Positions 5,955-18,010 of a DNA stretch of 64,000 nt are shown here, in pieces (position 1 is the first letter of the stretch; every line of letters starts with the position of its first letter). Location: NCBI GenBank assembly GCA_031277915.1, contig JAITLL010000055.1, positions 19,564 through 83,563 of the forward strand. Reading direction: 5' to 3'. The notes beneath the pieces were generated by a model. The model did not search any database. It was not told the DNA's origin and saw only the letters and a list, made by a program, of their open reading frames with translations. The translations under genes and the position numbers were made by a program. Source of the DNA: Acinetobacter sp. GTDB taxonomy: Bacteria > Pseudomonadota > Gammaproteobacteria > Pseudomonadales > Moraxellaceae.

Positions 5955-8669
5955 ATGAGCGTATCGGAAATCCGACCGATTGCCATTGAGGACGAACTCA
6001 AGCATTCATATTTAGATTACGCAATGAGTGTAATCGTATCTCGTGCATTGCCGGATGTGAGAGACGGTCTTAAACCTGTTCACCGTCGTGTGCTTTATGC
6101 CATGCACGAATTGGGCAATGACTATAACAAAGCCTACAAGAAATCTGCTCGTGTCGTTGGGGACGTAATCGGTAAATATCACCCGCATGGTGACTCAGCT
6201 GTTTATGAAACCATTGTTCGTATGGCTCAAGACTTTAGCTTACGTTATTTATTGGTTGATGGTCAGGGTAACTTCGGTTCGATCGATGGTGATAGCGCCG
6301 CGGCAATGCGTTATACCGAAGTCCGTATGACCAAGCTGGCGCATGAGCTTCTTGCAGATTTAGAAAAAGACACAGTTGACTGGGAAGATAACTACGACGG
6401 ATCTGAGCGTATTCCTCAGGTACTTCCGACACGCGTTCCAAACTTGTTAATTAACGGTGCTGCTGGTATTGCTGTAGGTATGGCAACCAACATGGCACCA
6501 CACAACATGACAGAAGTTGTGAATGCATGTTTGGCTTATGCTGATAATCCGAATATTTCGATTGAAGGATTGATGGAATACATTACTGGTCCTGACTTCC
6601 CTACAGGCGGTATTATTTACGGTAAATCAGGTATTGTAGATGCTTACCGTACAGGTAAAGGCCGTTTACACATTCGTGGTAAATATCATTTCGAAGAAGA
6701 TGAAAAGACTGGTCGTACAACTATCGTCTTTACTGAAATTCCATACCAAGTAAACAAAGCAAGAGTTATTGAACGTATTGCCGAGTTAGTTAAAGAGAAA
6801 AAACTTGAAGGTATTTCAGAGCTTCGTGATGAGTCTGACAAAGACGGTATGCGTATTGCAATTGACTTAAAACGCGGTGAAAACGCAGAAGTCGTTGTAA
6901 ATAACTTATTCTTAAATACCCAACTTGAAAACTCATTCAGCATCAACATGGTTTGTCTAGACAATGGACAACCAAAATTGATGAATCTGAAAGATATTAT
7001 TGCGGCATTTATTCGTCACCGCCAAGAAGTTGTGACACGCCGTACCATGTTTGAATTGCGTAAAGCACGTGAACGTGGTCATATCTTGGAAGGCTTGACA
7101 GTTGCCTTAGCCAATATTGATGAAATTATTGAAACCATCAAAACTTCTGCTAACCCTGCTGAAGCGCGTGAGCGTTTACTTGCTGGTGAGTGGGCAGGTG
7201 GTGGTGTTGTTTCATTACTTGAAAAAGCAGGTGCAATTTCTGTTCGTCCAGATGAAATTGAAGGTGAAGATCCAAATCGTCCATTTGGTCTAAGCGATTC
7301 AATTTACCGTCTATCTCCGACACAAGTTGGCGCAATTTTAGAATTACGTTTACACCGTTTAACTGGTTTAGAACAAGACAAGTTACACGCAGAATATACC
7401 GAAATTTTAGGTCAAATTGCTGAACTTACTGCCATTCTAAACGACTTCAATTTGTTGATGGCTGTTATTCGTGAAGAGCTAGCACAAGTGTTACAACAAT
7501 ATGGTGATGCACGTCGTACCGAAATTGTTGAATCTCGTGTTGATTTCTGCCGTGAAGATTTAATTCCAGAAGAACAGGTTGTATTAACTGTTTCACAAAC
7601 GGGTTATGCAAAAACTCAACCACTTTCAGATTATCAGGCACAGCGCCGTGGTGGACGTGGTAAGTCTGCAACCTCAATGAAAGATGATGATTTTATTCAA
7701 CATCTGATTGTGGCATCGAACCACGCGACGGTACTTTGCTTTACCAATGTGGGTAAAGTGTATCGTCTGAAAGTATTTGAAGTTCCTCAAGCATCACGTG
7801 GGGCAAAAGGCCGTCCAATCGTGAACTTGTTACCTTTAGATGCAAATGAAACTGTAACAGCTATCTTACCGTTGACTGAGTTCCCAGAAAATCACTATGT
7901 ATTTATGGCGACTGCTTCTGGTACGGTTAAACGTGTTGAGTTAGAACAGTTTGCAAACATTCGTTCAAATGGTCTACGCGCTATTGAGCTCAATGAAGAA
8001 GATACCTTAATTGGTGTTGCGATTACTGATGGTAATCAGCAAATCATGTTGTTCTCTAACGAAGGTAAGGCAATTCGTTTTGCTGAAACTGACGTTCGTG
8101 CAATGGGACGTACAGCGAAAGGTGTGCGTGGTATGCGCGTGAGCTTTGCAAGCAGTACCTTAAGTGAAGAAGATGCAGATGTAGAAAATGATGAATCGGA
8201 TGATAACGATGATTCAGCAGATTCAAGTCTGGTAAGCCGTATCGTATCGCTTGTTGTTGTACCTGAAACAGGTGAAGTGTTATGTGCGAGTGCCAACGGT
8301 TATGGTAAACGTACCCCTGTAAATGACTTCCCAACCAAGAAACGTGGTGGTAAGGGTGTTATTGCAATTAAAACAAGTGAACGTAACGGTGAGCTAGTTG
8401 GTGCAGTTTCTATTGATGAAACTAAAGAGTTATTGCTGATTTCTGATGGCGGTACGCTTGTTCGTACACGTGCAGCAGAAGTGGCAATGACAGGCCGTAA
8501 TGCTCAAGGTGTTCGTTTGATTCGTTTAAGCGAAGAAGAAACGCTAGTTGGTGTAGTTTCAATTGAAGCTGTAGAAGATGATGAAGAACTTCTTGAAGGC
8601 GAAGTAGATACGACTGAAACTGATAGTGAAGAAGTTGTATCTAATAATGAAGATACTTCTGAAGAGTAA
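5955..8669 (+). CDS. gyrA: DNA gyrase subunit A
   Basis: Breakage-reunion subunit of DNA gyrase. At 904 aa it is slightly longer than E. coli GyrA (875). The N-terminal topoisomerase domain carries the active-site Tyr120 (AAAMRYTE) and the QRDR around residues 65-105. Ser81 and Glu85 (GDSAVYET) are the wild-type residues, so the main fluoroquinolone-resistance substitutions are absent. The C-terminal beta-pinwheel has the GyrA box QRRGGRG near residue 560. Two acidic features stand out: a Glu/Asp/Ser-rich insertion at about residues 737-758 inside the pinwheel, and an acidic tail of about 35 residues. An AGAAGGAG ribosome site precedes the ATG. The gene is monocistronic and ends at a terminator shared with the convergent minus-strand operon. 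Confidence 0.97.
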
Positions 8670-8681
8670 GCATTTTAAAAT

Positions 8682-8709
8682 AAAAAAGGAAGCTTAGGCT
8701 TCCTTTTTT
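8682..8709. terminator. Bidirectional terminator between gyrA and the lipid A cassette
   Basis: A perfect 12-bp stem AAAAAAGGAAGC / GCTTCCTTTTTT with a TTAG loop. A-run and T-run flanks serve both convergent transcripts. Confidence 0.9.
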
Positions 8710-8722
8710 ATTTCTGATGTAT

Positions 8723-10369
8723 TTATTTTGTTGGATGGAAAATAAATACATCATAGTTTCGGTAGTGTAGAGTTTTTACAGAAGGGTCTTTAGTCACAAA
8801 ATTATTCGGTTGACTGACCACAATCAGATCTTGCTTTTGAGCTAGAGCATCTTTAAGTTGCTGTTCGCTCCATAAATATTTTTTAAGCTGAGGTTCAAAT
8901 AACAGGCCATCTTTAATTTCTAAAGAGGCACTATCAGAGTGAACACTATCCCATTCATTTACAATATATACAGGCTGTTTAAGCTGTAAAAGGAATGGCA
9001 CATCATAGAAATAGTAATTATAGAAAACTATTTTTGTAGATGGTGTTATGTATTCAGCGAAATCTGTTTGGCCTACATTATTTTTGGTATCCAAAATACG
9101 AACTGCAAAAGGAACCGAGCTACATAGAACAATCAAACTTATAAAAATATAGTTTAAATAGTTTAATTTCTGCTTTTTATATAAGCCTACTAGAAGCAGT
9201 GGGAGCACAATTAACAGTGTGCCAATGGTGTAAATGAATACAGCTTCGTGTTGGAAAAAAGGCTGATTCGCACGAATAAAATGTGGGGTAGCTACAATGC
9301 CGATCCCAAGAATCATAATAAATACAGGAGTACCCCATACCTGTAATTTGGTTTTATAACTGTTTTCAAGAACCTTATTAATCACAAGTGCCAAGAAAAT
9401 AGTAAGGGGTGGTACAGCTGGTAAAATATAGCCAGCTAGTTTAGACGGTGGAATAGAGAAGAAAACCGTGACTGAAATAAACCACCATACAAGCAGGGCA
9501 AATACACCAGATTGCTTATAATCTTTAAAGACGGCCTTAATCGACTCAAATCTACTCGAAAAAAACCAAGGTAAAGAACCGACAAATAAAATAAGCAGAT
9601 AGAAACTCCACGGTTGCTTATTATTAAATTCTTTTGAACTAAATCGACTAAATTGCTGGTCGATAAAGAAGTAATGTAAAAATTGAGGGTATTTACTTTG
9701 TACTGCGTACAGCCATGGGCTAATGATGAGTAAAAATAACAAGATAGCCAATGGATTAAGAAGAGAAGGTATTTTCTTCCACTGTTTAGTATAGAGTAAC
9801 CACGGCAACAGGATCATACCCGGAATGAGAACACCGATGAGGCCTTTACTTAGAAAGGCAGCTGCACCTGCAACATAACCTAAAAATAAAATAGGTTTAC
9901 GTGCAGAAATGGTGAAATCAGCAAAGCATAAAACGCTTAATGTAATCCCAGATGCTACTAGTAAATCATGATTAATATATTGGCTACTACCAAAAAAAAG
10001 TAGGTTAGTTGCTAAAATAATAACTGTGAGTTGCGCTACACGCTCTGAAATATGTTTTTTTACGAATAAAAATAGGCCAACTAACATAAGGGTACCGGCC
10101 AAAACAGGTACTAACCGTAATACCCATATATGTACACCGAAAAGCTCCATAAAAATAGAACTTAACCAATGTAGTAATGGCGGTTTATGCATAAATGGCA
10201 AACCATCAATTCGTGGAGTTAACCAATCTCCAGATTCGACCATAGCCCGGCTAATGTCTCCATAGCGACCTTCATCAGGTACAGATAAAGGTCTTATCCA
10301 AGAAAGAAGAAGTAACCAACACGGTAAAAAAAATAATAAAAATTTGGAATTACGAAGCCATTGCTGCAT
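8723..10369 (-). CDS. ArnT-like lipid A glycosyltransferase (GT39/GT83-type integral membrane protein)
   Basis: A 548-aa integral membrane protein with about 12 hydrophobic segments in its first 420 residues and a soluble periplasmic C-terminal part. The first periplasmic loop has the acidic signature PDEGRYGD (Asp32, Glu33) and a KPP motif (residues 62-64), as in ArnT and other polyprenyl-phosphate-sugar transferases. ArnT enzymes move an amino sugar from undecaprenyl phosphate to lipid A phosphate. The operon partners (GtrA-like protein, GT2 transferase, NaxD-like deacetylase) suggest that this one transfers galactosamine, like Francisella FlmK. That assignment is inference. It is the last gene of the cassette, starting 9 bp after the gtrA-like stop. 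Confidence 0.85.
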   Translation of the reverse strand: MQQWLRNSKFLLFFLPCWLLLLSWIRPLSVPDEGRYGDISRAMVESGDWLTPRIDGLPFMHKPPLLHWLSSIFMELFGVHIWVLRLVPVLAGTLMLVGLFLFVKKHISERVAQLTVIILATNLLFFGSSQYINHDLLVASGITLSVLCFADFTISARKPILFLGYVAGAAAFLSKGLIGVLIPGMILLPWLLYTKQWKKIPSLLNPLAILLFLLIISPWLYAVQSKYPQFLHYFFIDQQFSRFSSKEFNNKQPWSFYLLILFVGSLPWFFSSRFESIKAVFKDYKQSGVFALLVWWFISVTVFFSIPPSKLAGYILPAVPPLTIFLALVINKVLENSYKTKLQVWGTPVFIMILGIGIVATPHFIRANQPFFQHEAVFIYTIGTLLIVLPLLLVGLYKKQKLNYLNYIFISLIVLCSSVPFAVRILDTKNNVGQTDFAEYITPSTKIVFYNYYFYDVPFLLQLKQPVYIVNEWDSVHSDSASLEIKDGLLFEPQLKKYLWSEQQLKDALAQKQDLIVVSQPNNFVTKDPSVKTLHYRNYDVFIFHPTK

Positions 10370-10378
10370 ACACAGTCC

Positions 10379-10759
10379 TTAATGTTGAAATGCAAAAAAA
10401 CGGTTAAGCAAAAAAGTCACGACAGAGGTCAGAACAATTGCAATACACACTAAGGTTGAAACAGGTACATTAAAATAGAGGTTTGAGAGTAAAAGAAAAC
10501 TTTCATTAAATAAAAAACCTAAGCCTGCAACCAATGTGAATTTTGGTAGAGTCTGACGATGATCAAGATGTTGTGCTTTAAAAGTAAAAATGCGATGCCC
10601 GAAATAGCTCACCCAATAGGCGACTAAAAATGCGAGTAAATTGGCATATTGCAGTGCAACATGCTTCTGGAAAAGAAGCATGGCTACACTATAGTGAGTA
10701 AGTGCTGCTGCGGCCCCAGTAGTGGTAAACCGCATGAGCTGAAGAATATGAGCAAACAT
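10379..10759 (-). CDS. GtrA-family small membrane protein (putative lipid-linked sugar flippase)
   Basis: About 126 aa with four hydrophobic helices, including the FTTTGAAAALTHY start and the conserved VSYFGHRIFTF segment of the GtrA/DPMS family. GtrA-like proteins are thought to flip undecaprenyl-phosphate sugars across the inner membrane. Here that would bring the GT2 product to the ArnT-like enzyme. I chose the ATG at 10757-10759, one base after the stop of the upstream gene, which suggests translational coupling. A longer version beginning at 10837 would overlap the GT2 gene by 77 bp and adds a polar non-family extension. No clear ribosome site is visible for either start. Confidence 0.8.
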   Translation of the reverse strand: MFAHILQLMRFTTTGAAAALTHYSVAMLLFQKHVALQYANLLAFLVAYWVSYFGHRIFTFKAQHLDHRQTLPKFTLVAGLGFLFNESFLLLSNLYFNVPVSTLVCIAIVLTSVVTFLLNRFFAFQH

Positions 10760-10760
10760 G

Positions 10761-11741
10761 TTAGAAATTAGAGAACGTATTTTCCGGCTTTGTGATAGAT
10801 TTTTCTTGTTTAATACGAGAATGTTCGGATGCAACAATATATTTTGGTCTATTTTTTACTTCCGCATAAATTCGACCTACATATTCACCAACAATACCAA
10901 GGAATAACAACTGTATACCACCCAGTAATGTCATGCCTGCTACAAGTGTTGCCCAACCTGGAACAGAAACTCCCTCAATCAATGTATTTAGGATAATCCA
11001 TATACCGTAGCCCATAGCACCTAAGGCTAAGAAAGCACCAAAATAAATACATAAGCGTAAGGGTAAATCTGAAAAACCAGTTAAACCTGACATAGCCAAG
11101 TTAAAGAGAGATTTTACGTTGAAGCTAGAGCGACCATGTTGGCGTTCTTGTTCAGAAAAATTAACCCCTATACTTTTAAAACCAACCCAAGCATATAGGC
11201 CTTTCATATAGCGGTTTTTCTCTGGCAATTGTTTAATTGCCTCAACAACTTTTGCATCTAGTAGACGGAAGTCTCCAGCACTTTCAGGAATATCAATCGG
11301 AGAGCTTAAGTTTAATACCCGATAATAACCTTGGGTGAGAACACGTTTGAGCCAAGATTCCGTTGTACGATTACGAATGCCATATACCATGTCATAACCA
11401 TTTTTCCAAAGGTTAATCATGGTTGGAATTGCTTCAAATGGATGTTGAAAGTCAGCATCAATTAGTAGCGTAACTTCACCTGTCACATGATCTAAACCAG
11501 CGCTTAGGGCTGCTTCTTTACCAAAGTTGCGTGAAAGTTCAAGTACAACTAATGGATAGTCATCAATCATTGTTTGTAGAATTGGAATGGTATCGTCTTT
11601 GCTACCGTCATCTACCACAATAATTTCATAGCTAAGATTTTGTTGTTTCAGACTATTTGCCAAAGCAGGAATAAAGGTTTTTAAATTTTCTGCTTCGTTA
11701 TAGGCTGGAACAACGCAGGATAAAAAGGGTTTCATGTTCAT
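10761..11741 (-). CDS. GT2 polyprenyl-phosphate glycosyltransferase (ArnC/GtrB/FlmF-like)
   Basis: A cytoplasmic GT-A glycosyltransferase with a membrane anchor, 326 aa from the chosen ATG. PAYNEAENL starts the nucleotide-binding fold, DDGS is at 44-47, and the DxD metal motif is Asp95-Ala-Asp97 (DADFQHP). Two C-terminal transmembrane helices (about 215-240 and 255-280) are typical of DPM1/GtrB/ArnC enzymes, which load a sugar onto undecaprenyl phosphate. In this operon the likely product is undecaprenyl-phosphate-GalNAc, as for Francisella FlmF2 (inference). The start ATG overlaps the stop of the naxD-like gene in an ATGA, so the two are translationally coupled. A longer reading frame up to 11786 overlaps that gene and is rejected. 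Confidence 0.85.
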   Translation of the reverse strand: MNMKPFLSCVVPAYNEAENLKTFIPALANSLKQQNLSYEIIVVDDGSKDDTIPILQTMIDDYPLVVLELSRNFGKEAALSAGLDHVTGEVTLLIDADFQHPFEAIPTMINLWKNGYDMVYGIRNRTTESWLKRVLTQGYYRVLNLSSPIDIPESAGDFRLLDAKVVEAIKQLPEKNRYMKGLYAWVGFKSIGVNFSEQERQHGRSSFNVKSLFNLAMSGLTGFSDLPLRLCIYFGAFLALGAMGYGIWIILNTLIEGVSVPGWATLVAGMTLLGGIQLLFLGIVGEYVGRIYAEVKNRPKYIVASEHSRIKQEKSITKPENTFSNF

Positions 11742-12532
11742 TGCATTGTCCCTAGTCTGGTGAGTTGAATACCATATTGCTGACAATCAAGTTGGAATTG
11801 ATCCGAACAGAAGTACTGGTATTCTTGTATTCGGGCCTGTTGAATCGGATCTTGATCATTTGATTCTGCAAGCGCTGGATGACACATAATCAGTAAATGG
11901 TCTTTTGCATTTGCAAGCCAATATTGATTGAGTTCGCCATAGTCAGTTTGCTTAAAATCATAGATGCCAGCAAAGTGGTCGTTTTGATTAAAATGATAGG
12001 TCTGGCATGCTTTTGCTAAAGAATTAGAACCAAGTGCAGAGAGTACACGAGTCTTAAAACGATAATGGGGTAGATCTATAGGATGTTGTAAATTTCGAAT
12101 CCAACCCGTGAAATTTTTCTCTTTTAACAATTGCAGCAAAATATCACGTATAAATGGAAATTGATGAATATGTTGATGTCCATCAATAAAGTCAGGTTGT
12201 TTTCCCATTACCGAAACAAATAAGTCCCATTGCTCTTCAATACATTGAGTGATTGATTCACGATTGAGGCTAGAGGACCAAGCTCGTAAAATGAGCATAG
12301 GTAAAGAAAAAACAGTGTTACCTGAAGCGAAAGCATGGGTAAGATTTAAATGTAAACCGATATCAACTTGATCACTAAAAGGTTTTAATTTGGCAGCAGC
12401 GATTTCCCATAAATCAGATTGGGTCATACATGAGGTTGCTTGAAGTGCACCTTGTTCAATTAATTGAATAATTGCATCAGATATTTCTGCATTCATTGCA
12501 AAGTCATCTGCGCAATAACACACCTTTGCCAT
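11738..12532 (-). CDS. naxD: YdjC/ChbG/HpnK-family carbohydrate deacetylase, probably NaxD
   Basis: A 264-aa metal-dependent deacetylase of the YdjC superfamily. The Asp-Asp metal ligands lie close to the N-terminus (CADDFAMN), His61 in GLHLNLTH continues the site, and the DGHQHIHQFP motif near residue 160 is the second hallmark. In A. baumannii and Francisella, NaxD removes the acetyl group from undecaprenyl-phosphate-GalNAc so that galactosamine can be added to lipid A, and in A. baumannii it is reported as PmrB-regulated. The operon context and an upstream PmrA-box match support that identity here. The chosen start is the ATG at 12530-12532, with GGAA upstream; a TTG at 12538 is less likely. 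First gene of the four-gene cassette. Confidence 0.8.
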   Translation of the reverse strand: MAKVCYCADDFAMNAEISDAIIQLIEQGALQATSCMTQSDLWEIAAAKLKPFSDQVDIGLHLNLTHAFASGNTVFSLPMLILRAWSSSLNRESITQCIEEQWDLFVSVMGKQPDFIDGHQHIHQFPFIRDILLQLLKEKNFTGWIRNLQHPIDLPHYRFKTRVLSALGSNSLAKACQTYHFNQNDHFAGIYDFKQTDYGELNQYWLANAKDHLLIMCHPALAESNDQDPIQQARIQEYQYFCSDQFQLDCQQYGIQLTRLGTMQ

Positions 12533-12615: not shown

Positions 12616-12632
12616 CTTAATTTCAACTTAAA
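12616..12632 (-). promoter_or_regulatory. Putative PmrA box upstream of the naxD operon
   Basis: Read on the minus strand, the direct repeat is TTTAAG-TTGAA-ATTAAG. It fits the PmrA consensus (H)TTAA(K/D)-N5-(H)TTAA(K/D) at every position and lies on the same strand as naxD, 84 bp before its start codon. Nineteen bases after the second half-site is TAGTAT, a possible -10. The PmrA box and the PmrAB control of naxD are established knowledge; functional binding at this site is inference. Confidence 0.65.
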
Positions 12633-12789
12633 GTTTTATTAATGTTTCATGATAATTGATACAAATTAATACTTTGAATTTATTTGTTTTTTTTGAAATT
12701 TTCGGTCAATTTTTAAAAAAACAAGCCTTAACTATAAGATTTTATAGTAAATAAAAATATAACTTATCCACATTAATGAACTCTTAAAT

Positions 12790-13881
12790 TTATTTGGAAG
12801 TTTTTAAACGTGAATATGCAATAATTAAAAAAATAATTCCAATTGTCGCAAGAAAAATTAATTTTGGAACTACTGTCGTTAATGGAACGCCCATTTGATT
12901 CAATTGTACAAACATTTGAATGCCATGTGTAGAGGGTAAACACCAAGCAAACCATTGTAACCATTCAGGCATGGCTTGATGTGGCCATGCGGCACCAGTT
13001 AATAAGAAAAGGGGAACTGAACTAAATACAATAATATGTCCGGCGCGTTCTGGCATGTCTAAAAGCGAGCCAATCAACATACCTAATCCAATGACACAAC
13101 TAATAAAAATCGGAACTGCGACAAGTAAACCAATAAAGTTTCCACCATGTGGATAGTCATTAAACCACAAGGTAAAACCATAAAGATAAAAACTTCCTAA
13201 ACAACCAATGGTAAAGAGGCTCGCAAAAATTCCTACAAAACGAATAGGGGTAATCTTTTCGTGTTGTTCGCGGTAGCTTGCAATCAGCATGGCTAAACCA
13301 AGCACAATAGTTTGGTGAATAATAAGTGAGGCAACCGCCGGAAAAATATAGCTGCCATAGCCTGAAAGTGGGTTAAATAAAGGGACCTGATGAATAGAAA
13401 GCGCAGGTTGGAAATGTGTGCGTTGTCCAAATTTTTCAATATACTCCTTTAATGTTGCCTCAATAGATGTAGCTAGGCCCAACCCAATTTCTTTGGTTTT
13501 TAAAAAGTTAGTTGTACTTAAATATAAGCCAATTCCACCAGTTTCTCCGCGGCGTAGGCTTTGCGTTAGGTTGTGCGGTAAAAGCAAAATGCCATCGGCT
13601 TTTTGCTCGCGTACCATTTGTTCAGCTTCGAGAAAATTAGCAGTGACATCAACAATTTTTACATGTGGGCTATTAGTGGTTTGACCAATTAGTTGTGAAG
13701 TTAACAAACTTTGTTCTTCATCGACGATCACAATAGGAATAGATTCAGCCCGTTCTGCTTTATAGGCAGTTGGATAAAAAAAACTATAAAGAATGACCGA
13801 TAAAATAAGGGTCGTAAAAACTGAGCTATTACGGACAATATCTTTAAATGTTTGTGCATAAGCCTTTAAAAATTCTTTCAT
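12790..13881 (-). CDS. ABC-2-type transporter permease (second of a pair)
   Basis: A 363-aa ABC-2 membrane protein. One N-terminal helix (about residues 18-37, ending in FFYPTAYKAE) is followed by a large periplasmic loop (about 40-165), then five to six helices (about 175-358). This is the YhhJ/YbhR arrangement used in tripartite exporters. It starts within the end of the upstream permease gene (4-bp ATGA overlap), so the two are probably made as a heterodimer. No nucleotide-binding protein is encoded in this operon. The substrate is unknown; homologous systems export drugs or hydrophobic compounds. It is the last gene of the TolC-HlyD-permease-permease operon. Confidence 0.85.
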   Translation of the reverse strand: MKEFLKAYAQTFKDIVRNSSVFTTLILSVILYSFFYPTAYKAERAESIPIVIVDEEQSLLTSQLIGQTTNSPHVKIVDVTANFLEAEQMVREQKADGILLLPHNLTQSLRRGETGGIGLYLSTTNFLKTKEIGLGLATSIEATLKEYIEKFGQRTHFQPALSIHQVPLFNPLSGYGSYIFPAVASLIIHQTIVLGLAMLIASYREQHEKITPIRFVGIFASLFTIGCLGSFYLYGFTLWFNDYPHGGNFIGLLVAVPIFISCVIGLGMLIGSLLDMPERAGHIIVFSSVPLFLLTGAAWPHQAMPEWLQWFAWCLPSTHGIQMFVQLNQMGVPLTTVVPKLIFLATIGIIFLIIAYSRLKTSK

Positions 13882-15008
13882 TGTGTTGCCCCTTGAACTA
13901 ATTTTTTAAGCAACACACAACTTAAAAAGAAATAAATAAGGCAGTAGCCAATCAGAATTAAAAAGGGAGTTATTGAAATAAAAAGTGGACTTCCAATGAC
14001 CCATTGTTCGGTCTGGAGCTTTGCATAAGGTGTATATGGAATAATCAGTGACCAAAATTTAGTGAAAATCGGTGCATTATTTAAAGGTAGGGTAACACCA
14101 GCAAAACTTAAAGAAGAACCACCGTAAACTGCAATAAAACCAAAAGTTTTACTTAAATTTTTGGTGGCAAGAATGACGGTGCTACTAATGAGTGCATAAG
14201 AAAAATAAAGCAAAAACTGAGCAACTAATAATAAGCTGAGAGAACCCGCTATAAACCAACCTCTGATCTCAACGAGCCAGAACATCCATACCCATGTCCA
14301 TACACAAAAAATAAAGCTATAAAGTAAATTTTTAGCAAGTAAGCCACTAATAAAACTCTCTCGGTTGACCCACTGCGTTAATGTACCGCGTTTAAGTTCT
14401 TGTCCAATTGCAAAAGCCACACAACAACACAGTAACAAATGCAAAACGGCTGGAACCATGAAGGGTTCTAAATAAAACTCATAGCTCATGCTGGGGTTAT
14501 AGAGTGTTGAAATTTTGACGTGAGCTGTAGGAATATCTAAATAGGGGATATTATTTGCAAGATAACTCTGGCCTGTATAGTCTGCTAAAGCATTGAGCGT
14601 ACTGACCAGCATGGCCGAGGAAATCGTATTTCCTACGCTAAAAAAAGATTGGTTAAACGCGATGCTAATTTGGGCATCCTGAGCTTTTACAAAACGGTTT
14701 TCAGCGCCGTCAGGAATGAAAACATAACCCCAAATTTTGGTTTCATTGAGGAGTTTCTCAGCTTCGGTTGGGCTTGCCGTAATTGTTTTAACATCTATCG
14801 TATGATTTAAAGAAAGATACTTTTCAATATTGCGACTTAGCTCACTTTGGTCCTGATCAATAATAGCGATAGGTAAATGTTCAGCTTTACCTGCATAAAA
14901 CATGCTGCTAAACAAAAAAATGATTAAAGCGGGGATGAGTGTCACCATACACAAATCCCATTTGTTGCTTCTTAAATAGTTTAGTTCACGTAATATACTG
15001 GCAAACAT
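13878..15008 (-). CDS. ABC-2-type transporter permease (first of a pair)
   Basis: A 376-aa membrane protein with the same plan as its neighbour: an N-terminal helix (about residues 18-40, VTLIPALIIFLFSSMFYAGK), a periplasmic domain to about residue 170, then six hydrophobic segments including IPYTPYAKL. This is the ABC2_membrane_3 type. The start ATG lies 3 bp after the stop of the HlyD-type gene and the stop overlaps the next permease gene by 4 bp, so translation of the operon is tightly coupled. No Walker A or ABC signature motif is present in either permease, so ATP hydrolysis must come from a subunit encoded elsewhere, if this works as an ABC exporter. Confidence 0.85.
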   Translation of the reverse strand: MFASILRELNYLRSNKWDLCMVTLIPALIIFLFSSMFYAGKAEHLPIAIIDQDQSELSRNIEKYLSLNHTIDVKTITASPTEAEKLLNETKIWGYVFIPDGAENRFVKAQDAQISIAFNQSFFSVGNTISSAMLVSTLNALADYTGQSYLANNIPYLDIPTAHVKISTLYNPSMSYEFYLEPFMVPAVLHLLLCCCVAFAIGQELKRGTLTQWVNRESFISGLLAKNLLYSFIFCVWTWVWMFWLVEIRGWFIAGSLSLLLVAQFLLYFSYALISSTVILATKNLSKTFGFIAVYGGSSLSFAGVTLPLNNAPIFTKFWSLIIPYTPYAKLQTEQWVIGSPLFISITPFLILIGYCLIYFFLSCVLLKKLVQGATQ

Positions 15009-15011
15009 GCT

Positions 15012-16133
15012 TTATTTTTCTTCTTTAATTTTAAATAGAACACTCATGCCAACTTTTAAATCTTTAACAGGGCGTTCAGGAACCAGATGTAATTTAAAGC
15101 TTCGAATATCATAACCGCCAGTCTGACGAGTAGTTTTAATCGTGGCAAAGTCACCTTCTGCATCAATATTCTTGACTTTAAACACTACGCTTTGATTGAG
15201 TGCAGGAATGAATCCTTCTAGTGTTTTGTTTTTATAAACAGAAGCATATTGGTTTTCACCGACATTTAAACTCACCCATAAATCATCATCTTCTAAAATA
15301 CTGACAACAGGCACACCCATGGCAACCAGTTCAGAAGGTTTGCCATAAGTTTTTGAAACTGTACCTGAAATAGGAGCGAATAAGCGGGTTTCTGCTTCAA
15401 GTGCTTGAGCTTCATTGACTGCTGCTTTGGCAATATCAACTTGTGCATCTGCTGTAGATTTCTGCTGGCTGGTACTTCCTCGTTTTGCTCGCGCATATTG
15501 TTGATAAGAGGCTTCACTTAACTCTTGGGCAGAGGTTTGTGCTGCTAACATTTCATCTCGTCTTTGACGTGAAATGACACCTTGTCTATATAAATTTTCC
15601 CCGCGTTGATAAGTGGTTTTTGCAAGGTTTGCTTGAGCTTTGGTACTTTGCCAGTTGGCATAGAGAGTATCGATATTTTCCTGTTGAGAACCACGGTCTA
15701 CAGTCGATTGAAATGCTAAAGCCGATTGTAAAGTTGCCAAGGCTTGTTGCTTTTTGGCTTCTATTTCTGGGCTGACTAAACGAACTAGAGGTTGTCCTTT
15801 AGAAACTTTTTGGCCTTCTTGTACATAAATTTCTTCAATACGACTGGGAACTTTTGTACTGATATGAATCGTTTCTGCCTCAACTCGGCCTTGTAATTCA
15901 ATAGGCTTGGGTTGATAGCTTTTCCACAAACCGAAAATGATTAAACCTAATAGGGCAATAATAACTACACCAATAATCAGTTTAATTTTCGAATTTTTAG
16001 GTGATTGAGTATCACTTTTATTCGATTTTACTTCTTGAGTATTGTCCGTTTGAATATTCTGTTGATCTTGACCTGTATGCTCTGTATCCGTAACAGGTGA
16101 ATCTTGCTGAGAAGGAGATGATTCTTGATTCAT
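15012..16133 (-). CDS. HlyD-family membrane fusion (periplasmic adaptor) protein
   Basis: A 373-aa adaptor linking an inner-membrane exporter to an outer-membrane TolC channel. A polar Gln/Asp/Thr/Asn-rich N-terminal tail of about 48 residues precedes the single membrane anchor (about 49-69, IKLIIGVVIIALLGLIIFGL). Next come a biotinyl-lipoyl-like half motif (QGRVEAETIHIS, then VQEGQKVSKGQPLVRL), a coiled-coil hairpin (about 125-245) and the second lipoyl half (FAPISGTVSKTYGKPSE). The layout matches EmrA/YbhG/YhiI proteins. An AGGGGC ribosome site precedes the ATG. It sits 12 bp after the TolC-like gene and 3 bp before the first permease gene. The long disordered cytoplasmic tail is unusual. 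Confidence 0.9.
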   Translation of the reverse strand: MNQESSPSQQDSPVTDTEHTGQDQQNIQTDNTQEVKSNKSDTQSPKNSKIKLIIGVVIIALLGLIIFGLWKSYQPKPIELQGRVEAETIHISTKVPSRIEEIYVQEGQKVSKGQPLVRLVSPEIEAKKQQALATLQSALAFQSTVDRGSQQENIDTLYANWQSTKAQANLAKTTYQRGENLYRQGVISRQRRDEMLAAQTSAQELSEASYQQYARAKRGSTSQQKSTADAQVDIAKAAVNEAQALEAETRLFAPISGTVSKTYGKPSELVAMGVPVVSILEDDDLWVSLNVGENQYASVYKNKTLEGFIPALNQSVVFKVKNIDAEGDFATIKTTRQTGGYDIRSFKLHLVPERPVKDLKVGMSVLFKIKEEK

Positions 16134-16145
16134 TTTATGCCCCTA

Positions 16146-17633
16146 TTAGCGGATATAGTCAGTGTGTGGTTGAATCACATAAGCTTTAAACTGGTCCATA
16201 GAACCATGGCTTTGCAGTAAAGTTGCGAGTGACATGACATATTTATATGCATTTAAAGCCATTTCAGTTTTTAGAGTACTTAATGCATTTTGCGCATCGA
16301 TCACTTGTGTCGCTGTTCCCATACCTTCTCGGAAAGAAAGCTCTTGAATACGTAGGTTTTCTTGTGCTGCATTGACATTTTTTTGCAATAAGCTATGGCT
16401 TTGCTGCGCTGAATTAAGCTCGTTATAAGACTTATTCAATAATGCTTCAATCTCTTGTTTAGTTCGTTCAGTCATGAGCTCAGAGGCATAACGTTTTAGC
16501 TCGGCAGCATGAATATTCTTATTTTTATCTACACCCGAAAACAGGTTGTACTTTGCCATGACACCTACAATCCAGTTTTCCTTTTCATCTAGTGAATATT
16601 CACCAAAAGCAAAAAGACTTGGTTTCTTTGCTGCTTGTTGAGCTTGAATATTTGCATTAGCCAATTGAGTATCTAACTGCATTTTTTGTACAAGGCTCGA
16701 TTTTTGAGCGTAACTATTTAGCAGTGCTTCTAAAGATTGGCTACGAACTGTATTTACAAAAAGAGGCGTACTTAAATCAGGATTGCTTTGCTGATGCAGA
16801 AGATTGTTTAAATTAAATTGACTCGCATTCAGATTGGCTTGTGCGTTTTGTAAAGCCCGCTCTGCATTGTTACGGGCAACTTCAAATTGCATACGTTGCC
16901 CTTTACTAATAAAACCTTGCTGTTCGAGCTTTAGTGCATTGCTGTAATGTTTCTGCATTGCATTAAAGTTAAATAAGCTACTCGCGACCAGTTGTTGCTG
17001 TAATTGCACATTAAAATAATTCTGTACGACTTCAAACCGCTGGATATCTTGTTGTTGTTGGCTTGAAAGCTCGGAGCGCTGGGCCTGAATGTTGGCTATC
17101 TTTTTTGCACTACTGGTTAGACCACCAGTATAGAGTGGCATAACCACTGAAATAGAAGGGCGTACCACTTGGTCTTCTATAGTTAAATTAGTGTAATTGG
17201 GAAAACGATTTATACCGTCATGTATGATTTGGTTAGAACCTTCTTGAACTTGACCTAAAACATCAGATGGAATGACATTGTTCCACTGGGAAAGTTTATC
17301 ATTTAGTCCTTGGCTTAAATCATTTTCAAGCTTTTGTTTAAAGCCGCCAAGAGGTACATCTGTTTCGCTATGAAAAGCATAAGCTCTAACGTTTAAATCA
17401 ACTCTAGGTAACCCTAAGCCCTTTACTGCTTCGGCTTCTAATTGAGAGGCTTGCTGTAATGCTTGATTGGCTTGAGTACTATATGAACTTTTTAAAGCTT
17501 GTTGTTCTGCTTCGGCATAACTTAAACTTTGTGCATAAATAGGCGTTGTAACAAGTACTCCCAATACCAACGCGAGATAACTGGGTTTGAATAAGAAAGG
17601 GCGTTTAGACTGTCGATATTGATGTGTTGGCAT
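16146..17633 (-). CDS. TolC-family outer membrane efflux protein
   Basis: Outer-membrane channel of a tripartite exporter, about 495 aa. A signal peptide is visible (basic RQSKRPFLFK, then a hydrophobic LALVLGVLVTTPIYA with cleavage at YAQ). Two OEP repeats follow, rich in Gln/Asn/Ala coiled-coil helices (about residues 40-270 and 280-490), as in TolC. The start ATG is at 17631-17633; the longer frame begins with TTG at 17645 and is less likely. First gene of the operon, transcribed divergently from serC, with a 377-bp AT-rich region between them. There is no lipobox, unlike OprM/NodT-type channels. Confidence 0.9.
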   Translation of the reverse strand: MPTHQYRQSKRPFLFKPSYLALVLGVLVTTPIYAQSLSYAEAEQQALKSSYSTQANQALQQASQLEAEAVKGLGLPRVDLNVRAYAFHSETDVPLGGFKQKLENDLSQGLNDKLSQWNNVIPSDVLGQVQEGSNQIIHDGINRFPNYTNLTIEDQVVRPSISVVMPLYTGGLTSSAKKIANIQAQRSELSSQQQQDIQRFEVVQNYFNVQLQQQLVASSLFNFNAMQKHYSNALKLEQQGFISKGQRMQFEVARNNAERALQNAQANLNASQFNLNNLLHQQSNPDLSTPLFVNTVRSQSLEALLNSYAQKSSLVQKMQLDTQLANANIQAQQAAKKPSLFAFGEYSLDEKENWIVGVMAKYNLFSGVDKNKNIHAAELKRYASELMTERTKQEIEALLNKSYNELNSAQQSHSLLQKNVNAAQENLRIQELSFREGMGTATQVIDAQNALSTLKTEMALNAYKYVMSLATLLQSHGSMDQFKAYVIQPHTDYIR

Positions 17634-18010
17634 TTTATATAACAATTTTGATCATCCCTTATAGTTTAAATTTCTTGTTATTAAATTCAACTATCATATT
17701 GTTTATTATACAATTGTATAAAATAAAAAAATGATTTTGAGTTTATTTTGCTTGATGGAAAATCATACAGTAAATTTTTATATATTCATCACAATATGGG
17801 AAACTTCATTCACAAGTCAAGTTGAACTTTATTTAATAAAACTTATAAAAAAATAAGTGAAAGCAAAGAAATAAATAAAATAGTTATTGAAAAAATAAAC
17901 CTAAATACACCCTAGCATTGAAATATTTACTAGAGAAGCTGCTGCAAGCTTAAGCAATCTGTGGTTAAATGCCTTTTTTTATTGTGTTTCACTTTTACAA
18001 GGGAAAAATC
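17634..18010. other. Divergent intergenic region between the TolC operon and serC (377 bp)
   Basis: Very AT-rich with no supported ORF. It must contain the promoters of both the exporter operon and serC. The sequence TTGTTTATTATACAATTG at about 17699-17716 is an imperfect inverted repeat (CAATTGTATAAT-like on the other strand) and could be an operator or a -10-rich segment. No known box is recognised. Confidence 0.45.

What the first reader, a model, noticed from the sequence alone, without database searches (positions are those of the whole stretch)
8723..12532. Complete four-gene lipid A amino-sugar cassette including a candidate flippase
Seen: in one minus-strand operon, a YdjC-type deacetylase, a GT2 polyprenyl-phosphate transferase (ATGA-coupled), a GtrA-like four-helix protein and an ArnT-like transferase. 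Known: in Francisella FlmF2/NaxD/FlmK and in A. baumannii NaxD, these activities add galactosamine to lipid A and affect polymyxin resistance. Inferred: the GtrA-like gene is the undecaprenyl-phosphate-sugar flippase, a step that as far as I know is not assigned in Acinetobacter. All four steps (load, deacetylate, flip, transfer) would then sit in one transcript.
Basis: partly seen in the sequence, partly recalled or inferred. Interest (0 to 1): 0.75.

Follow-up and report, generated by a model that had tools for sequence, protein, structure and literature searches.

The report
Lipid A amino-sugar operon with GtrA partner
Four neighbouring genes in an Acinetobacter look like a complete, jointly controlled kit for putting a positively charged sugar on the outer-membrane lipid, and they offer likely proteins for two steps (carrying the sugar across the membrane and attaching it) that recent papers call unidentified.

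Summary
In detail: four tightly coupled minus-strand genes at 8723-12532 encode YdjC/NaxD, GtrB-type GT2, GtrA and ArnT-like proteins, with two PmrA-box matches upstream and a terminator hairpin downstream. In 150 Acinetobacter genomes GtrA and NaxD occur in the same 26. All 25 four-gene sets (two with a broken ArnT-like gene) keep one order, and 24 of 25 have a PmrA box. Among the best 80 NaxD-relative loci from named genomes, GtrA is nearby in 68 although gene order is reshuffled. In a separate sample of 100 gammaproteobacterial GtrA loci, 7 of the 9 scoring highest against the cassette GtrA model have a strong NaxD beside them, and 0 of the other 91 do. This supports a complete lipid A hexosamine module with GtrA as candidate translocator and the ArnT-like protein as candidate transferase; papers of 2022 and 2025 call these Acinetobacter steps unidentified. 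It is not a new kind: Bordetella lgm and Francisella flm/nax do comparable chemistry. Flipping by GtrA is unproven, a scaffold role is possible, and Bordetella lgmD (family not established here) is reported not essential. Polymyxin effects are reported as minor beside PmrC.

The parts
12616..12643 (-). two overlapping PmrA-box matches (three half-sites spaced 5 nt): ATTAAT-AAAAC-TTTAAG-TTGAA-ATTAAG
   Evidence: a match in 24 of 25 cassettes within 220 nt upstream, starting 96-114 nt before the deacetylase (one cassette has a second at 159); about 1 of 25 expected from shuffles; the first half-site differs from the CTTAAG-AAAAC-TTTAAG printed for A. baumannii naxD in PMC9431647
11738..12532 (-). 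YdjC-type N-acetylhexosamine deacetylase, NaxD (264 aa)
   Evidence: PF04794 165 bits; matches in 26 of 150 Acinetobacter genomes
10761..11741 (-). GT2 polyprenyl-phosphate glycosyltransferase, GtrB-like (326 aa), ATGA overlap with NaxD
   Evidence: PF00535 107 bits; best solved relative GtrB sll0501, 289 bits, against 149 bits for the best ArnC
10379..10759 (-). GtrA-family four-helix membrane protein (126 aa), candidate undecaprenyl-phosphate-hexosamine translocator
   Evidence: PF04138 68 bits; AlphaFold pLDDT 86.6, four helices; best fold match the DPMS membrane domain, E 0.019
8723..10369 (-). ArnT-like GT-C transferase (548 aa), candidate lipid A hexosamine transferase
   Evidence: PMT_2 78 bits; one solved relative, ArnT 5ezm/5f15, 162 bits; NCBIfam ArnT equivalog 187 bits, below its cut-off of 567
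8677..8714 (-). terminator hairpin shared with the converging gyrA
   Evidence: -20.1 kcal/mol, z -6.8, 0 of 200 shuffles as stable

Best explanation
The four genes are one PmrA-controlled operon that adds a hexosamine (GalN by analogy with A. baumannii) to lipid A. Inferred order: GT2 loads N-acetylhexosamine from its UDP form onto undecaprenyl phosphate at the cytoplasmic face; NaxD deacetylates it there; GtrA moves the amino-sugar lipid across the inner membrane, or makes that possible; the ArnT-like GT-C enzyme transfers the sugar to a lipid A phosphate on the periplasmic side. Shown here: protein families, gene coupling, promoter-box matches, terminator, genus-wide co-occurrence, wider linkage of GtrA to NaxD. 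Taken from papers: the NaxD step and its PmrA control. Inferred: sugar identity, GtrA as translocator, the ArnT-like protein as the lipid A transferase.
For: Families. NaxD and GtrA occur in the same 26 of 150 Acinetobacter genomes; ArnT-like in 25 of those. PF04138 hits above 60 bits occur only in those 26; 9 further genomes have only hits of 25-42 bits. Same order in 25 of 25. PmrA box in 24 of 25, about 1 expected. Of 80 NaxD-relative loci, GtrA nearby in 68 in many arrangements. In 100 gammaproteobacterial GtrA loci, 7 of the 9 scoring at least 77 bits with the Acinetobacter GtrA model have NaxD (178-276 bits) beside them; of the other 91 none has a strong NaxD and 4 have a weak YdjC match of 44-61 bits. 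The five ArnT positions that I recall as catalytic or phosphate-binding are invariant in 19 aligned orthologues. The two proteins matching the SMR family PF00893 in the window's genome keep the Glu that I recall as typical of drug and guanidinium exporters.
Against: Co-occurrence shows a shared pathway, not transport. PMC4993483 (passage) says lgmD of the Bordetella lgm cluster proved not essential for glucosamine addition; if lgmD is the GtrA gene, GtrA may be dispensable or redundant. 12 of 80 loci have no GtrA in the fetched stretch; 9 of those 12 genomes carry some PF04138 gene elsewhere, but in only 2 is it of the cassette subfamily, one of them on the same contig about 8 kb away. Two high-scoring GtrAs (L202, L203) have no NaxD or GT2 match nearby, and 6 of the other 91 sampled loci hold GT2 and a strong ArnT-model match (318-368 bits) with a lower-scoring GtrA and no NaxD, so GtrA-GT2-GT-C sets also exist without a deacetylase. 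One A. baumannii study found no GalN-lipid A although naxD was present. UDP-GalNAc supply, PmrA/PmrB and EamA/DMT-type transporters were not checked in this genome.
Confidence: 0.62

Rival explanations
1. GtrA is not the flippase. It is a membrane partner that holds GT2 and the GT-C enzyme together or tunes GT2, and another transporter (or slow leakage) moves the lipid.
For: Best fold match is to the membrane domain fused to the catalytic domain in dolichol-phosphate mannose synthase. GtrA-GT2 adjacency is the tightest link in the 80 loci: within 100 nt in 54 of 67. lgmD reported not essential. I recall, from no call, that mycobacterial Rv3789 was proposed both as flippase and as anchor.
Against: GT2 aligns with GtrB over residues 6-304 of 326 and fetched orthologues show 2-3 hydrophobic segments of their own, so it should need no anchor. 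In at least 8 of 67 non-Acinetobacter loci GtrA is kept on the opposite strand between ArnT and NaxD, not beside GT2. GtrA distances track ArnT (Spearman 0.86) better than GT2 (0.57) across 22 cassettes, a weak hint.
Confidence: 0.27
2. The module modifies something other than lipid A, or uses another hexosamine such as GlcN.
For: Comparable Bordetella enzymes add GlcN (passages). GT2 specificity cannot be read from sequence. GtrA/GtrB/GT-C sets glucosylate O-antigen in other bacteria (PMC11127046, passages).
Against: A. baumannii NaxD is reported to take part in GalN addition to lipid A (passages). PmrA-box matches. The only solved relative of the GT-C component found by sequence is lipid A transferase ArnT.
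Confidence: 0.1
3. Ordinary neighbours: an operon whose genes have unrelated roles.
For: None found.
Against: Same 26 genomes for NaxD and GtrA, same order in 25 of 25, more than one chromosomal site, shared upstream box, linkage in many other bacteria.
Confidence: 0.01

Closest known systems
Acinetobacter baumannii naxD operon
   Same: NaxD with PmrA box.
   Different: The passages read leave the transport and attachment genes unassigned ('unnamed operon', 'unknown enzyme'). The window's box differs in one half-site.
Bordetella lgmABCD lipid A glucosamine locus
   Same: Four-gene locus including an ArnT orthologue, adding a hexosamine of +161 Da to lipid A phosphates (passages). Alcaligenaceae-type relatives in my set (e.g. 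L113, L123) hold GT2, ArnT, GtrA and NaxD together.
   Different: GlcN, BvgAS-controlled. lgmD reported not essential. Which family LgmD belongs to was not established, and no Bordetella genome was examined.
Francisella FlmF2/NaxD/FlmK with FlmX
   Same: GalN on lipid A, with an undecaprenyl-P-GalN donor named in a title in a review's reference list.
   Different: As I recall, FlmX is the transporter there; the SMR review cites the FlmX paper for complementation of flippase mutants. The GtrA here matches only PF04138 at E 0.001 and its best fold match is DPMS. PMC11127046 groups Rv3789 and the O-antigen flippases with SMR transporters, so the two groups may be distantly alike. No Francisella genome was examined.
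Shigella/Salmonella GtrA-GtrB-Gtr(type) glucosylation
   Same: GtrA + GtrB-type GT2 + GT-C three-component logic (PMC11127046, passages).
   Different: Glucose on O-antigen; no deacetylase named there. The cassette GtrAs form a separate subfamily by score.

Membership tests
NaxD (YdjC deacetylase) | YdjC family match with conserved Asp/His metal-site motifs | tested here: met
   PF04794 165 bits; D9, D10, H61, H119, H121 and H123 invariant in 17 aligned sequences; metal role recalled; L030, with one of these Asp changed, was not in that alignment
NaxD (YdjC deacetylase) | PmrA box upstream as in A. baumannii naxD | tested here: met
   loose published motif HTTAAD-N5-HTTAAD matched twice in the window and in 24 of 25 cassettes; the stricter TTTAAG-N5-TTTAAG of PMC10927774 is not matched exactly
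NaxD (YdjC deacetylase) | deacetylates undecaprenyl-P-GalNAc | not testable with these tools
   needs enzyme assay
GtrB/ArnC-type polyprenyl-phosphate glycosyltransferase | GT2 domain plus C-terminal membrane helices | tested here: met
   PF00535; GtrB 5ekp aligned over residues 6-304 of 326 with 289 bits; 2-3 hydrophobic segments in fetched orthologues by a simple hydropathy count
GtrA family | PF04138 domain with four membrane helices | tested here: met
   68 bits vs cut-off 26.1; four helices
GtrA family | moves a polyprenyl-P-sugar across the membrane | not testable with these tools
ArnT (NCBIfam equivalog PRK13279) | score above curated cut-off 567 | tested here: not met
   186.7 bits: ArnT-like, not ArnT
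ArnT-like GT-C fold enzymes | catalytic and phosphate-binding residues (recalled: D55, K85, D158, R270, Y345 of CmArnT) | tested here: met
   D32, K62, D135, R242, Y314 invariant in 19 orthologues; recalled Zn ligands E84 and H265 are instead His61 and Asp/Glu237
SMR-type glycolipid flippase (ArnE/ArnF, FlmX) | Multi_Drug_Res/SMR family match | tested here: not met
   GtrA matches only PF04138 in Pfam at E 0.001; best fold matches DPMS
Bordetella Lgm locus | GT2, ArnT-like and deacetylase genes in one locus | tested here: met
   the family make-up of lgm itself is partly recalled
Bordetella Lgm locus | LgmD is a GtrA protein | not tested

The most novel reading that the evidence does not exclude
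The NaxD-linked GtrAs are a distinct translocator subfamily for amino-sugar (cationic) undecaprenyl-phosphate lipids, spread over Proteobacteria and beyond. They carry an intramembrane signature of Gly54-His55 in helix 2 and Asn85-Glu/Gln86 in helix 3, which other GtrAs mostly lack as a set and which would read the deacetylated sugar, so that only finished GalN or GlcN lipid crosses. The route would be parallel to ArnE/F and FlmX.
Probability: 0.35. Interest if true: 0.68.

Novelty: new member of a known kind. Interest (0 to 1): 0.5.

Why it matters
In Acinetobacter the enzyme that attaches GalN to lipid A and the step that carries it across the membrane are described as unidentified in papers of 2022 and 2025 (passages). 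The operon offers one candidate for each. A. baylyi DSM 14961 carries the same cassette with a PmrA-box match (L051/L063), so both can be tested by gene removal in a laboratory species. The GtrA subfamily result could also help to sort GtrA proteins by likely cargo.

Tried and rejected
Chance or unrelated neighbours: rejected. True ArnT/Ara4N pathway: rejected, the ArnT-like protein is far below the equivalog cut-off, and PMC9431647 states arnBCADTEF is absent from A. baumannii; other arn genes were not searched here. SMR flippase in this genome: two PF00893 proteins found, in other contexts, judged poor candidates, not excluded.

E86 as a strict acid signature for cationic cargo: weakened. 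In the separate sample it is Glu in 4 of 7 NaxD-linked GtrAs and Gln in 3 of 7, against Glu in 2 of 81 unlinked; those two (L202, L203) are of the same subfamily by score. His55 is 7 of 7 against 9 of 81. That alignment used 88 of the 100 loci; 12 without a model hit were dropped.

In B. holmesii the published lgm coordinates (PMC5454989) leave 857 bp after ArnT, room for a deacetylase but not also for a GtrA placed as in L113, so GtrA there is outside or absent. This stays open.

Viral contigs gave one marginal match, not pursued. The solved-structure search with GtrA by sequence found nothing up to E = 1. A second structure job was not used.
Full report
What is there. The minus strand at 12532-8723 holds four genes: YdjC/NaxD deacetylase, GtrB-type GT2, GtrA, ArnT-like GT-C. 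NaxD and GT2 overlap by 4 nt, GtrA starts 1 nt after GT2 and the ArnT-like gene 9 nt after GtrA. The listed TTG starts upstream are not needed: NaxD has an in-frame ATG at 12532 and GtrA an ATG at 10759. A 17-pair hairpin ends the run before gyrA. Upstream, three TTAA half-sites spaced by 5 nt make two overlapping PmrA-box matches, 100 and 111 nt before NaxD. Published A. baumannii work reports PmrA binding to the naxD promoter (PMC10927774, passages) and prints the box CTTAAG-AAAAC-TTTAAG (PMC9431647, passages). Four relatives in my set carry exactly that box; the window has ATTAAT in place of the first half-site.

Genus test. Over the same draw of 150 Acinetobacter genomes, the window GtrA finds 26 genomes, NaxD the same 26, and the ArnT-like protein 26: 25 of those plus G013, where only a C-terminal piece at a contig start is seen. 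GT2 matches at 69% identity or more lie in 25 of the 26; two 42% matches lie in G035 and G050. The family model PF04138 finds 35 genomes. The hits above 60 bits are exactly the 26; the other nine genomes have only hits of 25-42 bits, and two of the 26 have a second, weak copy. I fetched the 24 other four-gene cassettes. Order NaxD-GT2-GtrA-ArnT holds in 25 of 25 counting the window; in L030 and L031 the ArnT-like gene is broken. 19 lie next to gyrA and 6 (L046-L051) elsewhere. A PmrA box lies within 220 nt upstream in 24 of 25, about 1 expected from shuffles; L047 has none. G035 has a diverged GT2-GtrA-NaxD set with a split GT-C upstream. The genomes are one per species, so the 26 are related and not independent events.

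Wider test. All 13 Acinetobacter loci have all four genes, GT2 being in two pieces in one (L061). Among the other 67, GtrA is present in 55, GT2 in 61, an ArnT-model match in 40, all four in 31, in many gene orders. Some contigs end inside the stretch. 17 loci, all titled Legionella, Fluoribacter or Legionellaceae, have GtrA and GT2 opposite NaxD without an ArnT match in the fetched stretch. Seven of the full-length ArnT-model matches lack the ArnT motifs and are probably other GT-C enzymes, so the ArnT count is generous. Of the 12 loci without GtrA, 9 genomes have a PF04138 gene elsewhere. In two of these it is of the cassette subfamily (78 and 100 bits) and beside a cassette-type GT2; one (L148) lies on the same contig as its NaxD locus (L110), about 8 kb away, judged by equal contig length. 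Of 19 unlinked GtrA places fetched, 11 hit the Acinetobacter GtrA model: these two, and nine at 13-31 bits; 8 gave no hit. The 55 linked GtrAs outside Acinetobacter scored 53-145 bits.

Separate sample. PF04138 over 232 Gammaproteobacteria matched 101 genomes. I fetched the 100 best places, leaving out the window's own and one with a stop inside. Of the 9 scoring at least 77 bits with the Acinetobacter GtrA model, 7 have NaxD at 178-276 bits within about 5 kb; L202 and L203, from one genus, have none. Of the other 91, none has a strong NaxD and 4 have a weak YdjC match of 44-61 bits; 6 hold GT2 and a strong ArnT-model match without NaxD. Some stretches are cut by contig ends. So the cassette GtrA belongs to a NaxD-associated subfamily, and the association is not an artefact of having searched by NaxD. 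The signature Gly54-His55 and Asn85-Glu/Gln86 comes; Glu86 is not strict, and Asn85 alone is common elsewhere (57 of 81 unlinked).

Mechanism. NaxD shows no hydrophobic segment in the Acinetobacter orthologues checked with a simple hydropathy count, so deacetylation before crossing is the natural order. GT2 is closest to GtrB among solved structures (289 bits against 149 for the best ArnC). The ArnT-like protein keeps the five catalytic and phosphate-binding positions that I recall for ArnT; the two recalled zinc ligands are replaced by His61 and Asp/Glu237. GtrA folds most like the DPMS membrane domain (Foldseek probability 1.00, but E 0.019 and no match at E 0.001 or better, TM 0.58). That fits both a transporter and a partner of the glycosyltransferase. 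A model of the complex was not run.

Known systems. Papers were seen as passages only. PMC9431647 (2022): enzymes for transport and attachment of GalN 'have not yet been identified'. PMC12330716 (2025): GalN is added 'by an unknown enzyme'. PMC12691633 speaks of the naxD-containing operon. Searches with naxD plus GtrA, flippase or ArnT terms listed no paper holding both naxD and GtrA (27 of 27 listed; 30 of 37 listed), and one with YdjC and GtrA listed none holding both (15 of 27 listed); the library holds open licences only, and Chin et al. 2015 on A. baumannii NaxD was not seen. The closest system is Bordetella lgmABCD: lgmA-C needed, lgmD 'not essential' (PMC4993483). PMC11127046 calls GtrA a proposed flippase and says direct evidence is lacking. 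Resistance weight: PmrC is the main effector and naxD minor in the strains studied.

Verdict. A well-supported new member of the known lipid A hexosamine class, with a candidate for each step called unidentified in Acinetobacter and an associated GtrA subfamily. The flippase claim itself is a hypothesis at about 0.6.

Noticed in passing
L030 (G100) and L031 (G085): The cassette is decaying in two close relatives: the ArnT-like frame is interrupted by an inserted piece in L030, where one NaxD motif Asp is also changed, and is split in two frames in L031. Described only.
   Followed up: partly
L061, about 6747-9084: In A. colistiniresistens NIPH 2036 the cassette GT2 is in two pieces about 1.3 kb apart, so the cassette of this strain is probably not working.
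   Followed up: no
   Followed up: partly
L047/L065 (G048): A genome labelled A. baumannii ACIN00150 carries a cassette with NaxD only 51-52% identical to the window's, away from gyrA and without a PmrA-box match; the label may be wrong.
   Followed up: no
window 12790-17645: Upstream run of TolC-like, HlyD-like and two ABC-2 permease genes; no ATPase gene was seen among the ORFs listed on either side.
   Followed up: no
L072, L075, L101, L116: Legionella-type loci hold NaxD with convergent GtrA-GT2, and a protein with 8-9 hydrophobic segments directly upstream of NaxD, with no ArnT match in the stretch.
   Followed up: no
L202, L203: Two genomes of one genus have a GtrA of the cassette subfamily with no NaxD, GT2 or ArnT match within about 5 kb.
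   Followed up: no
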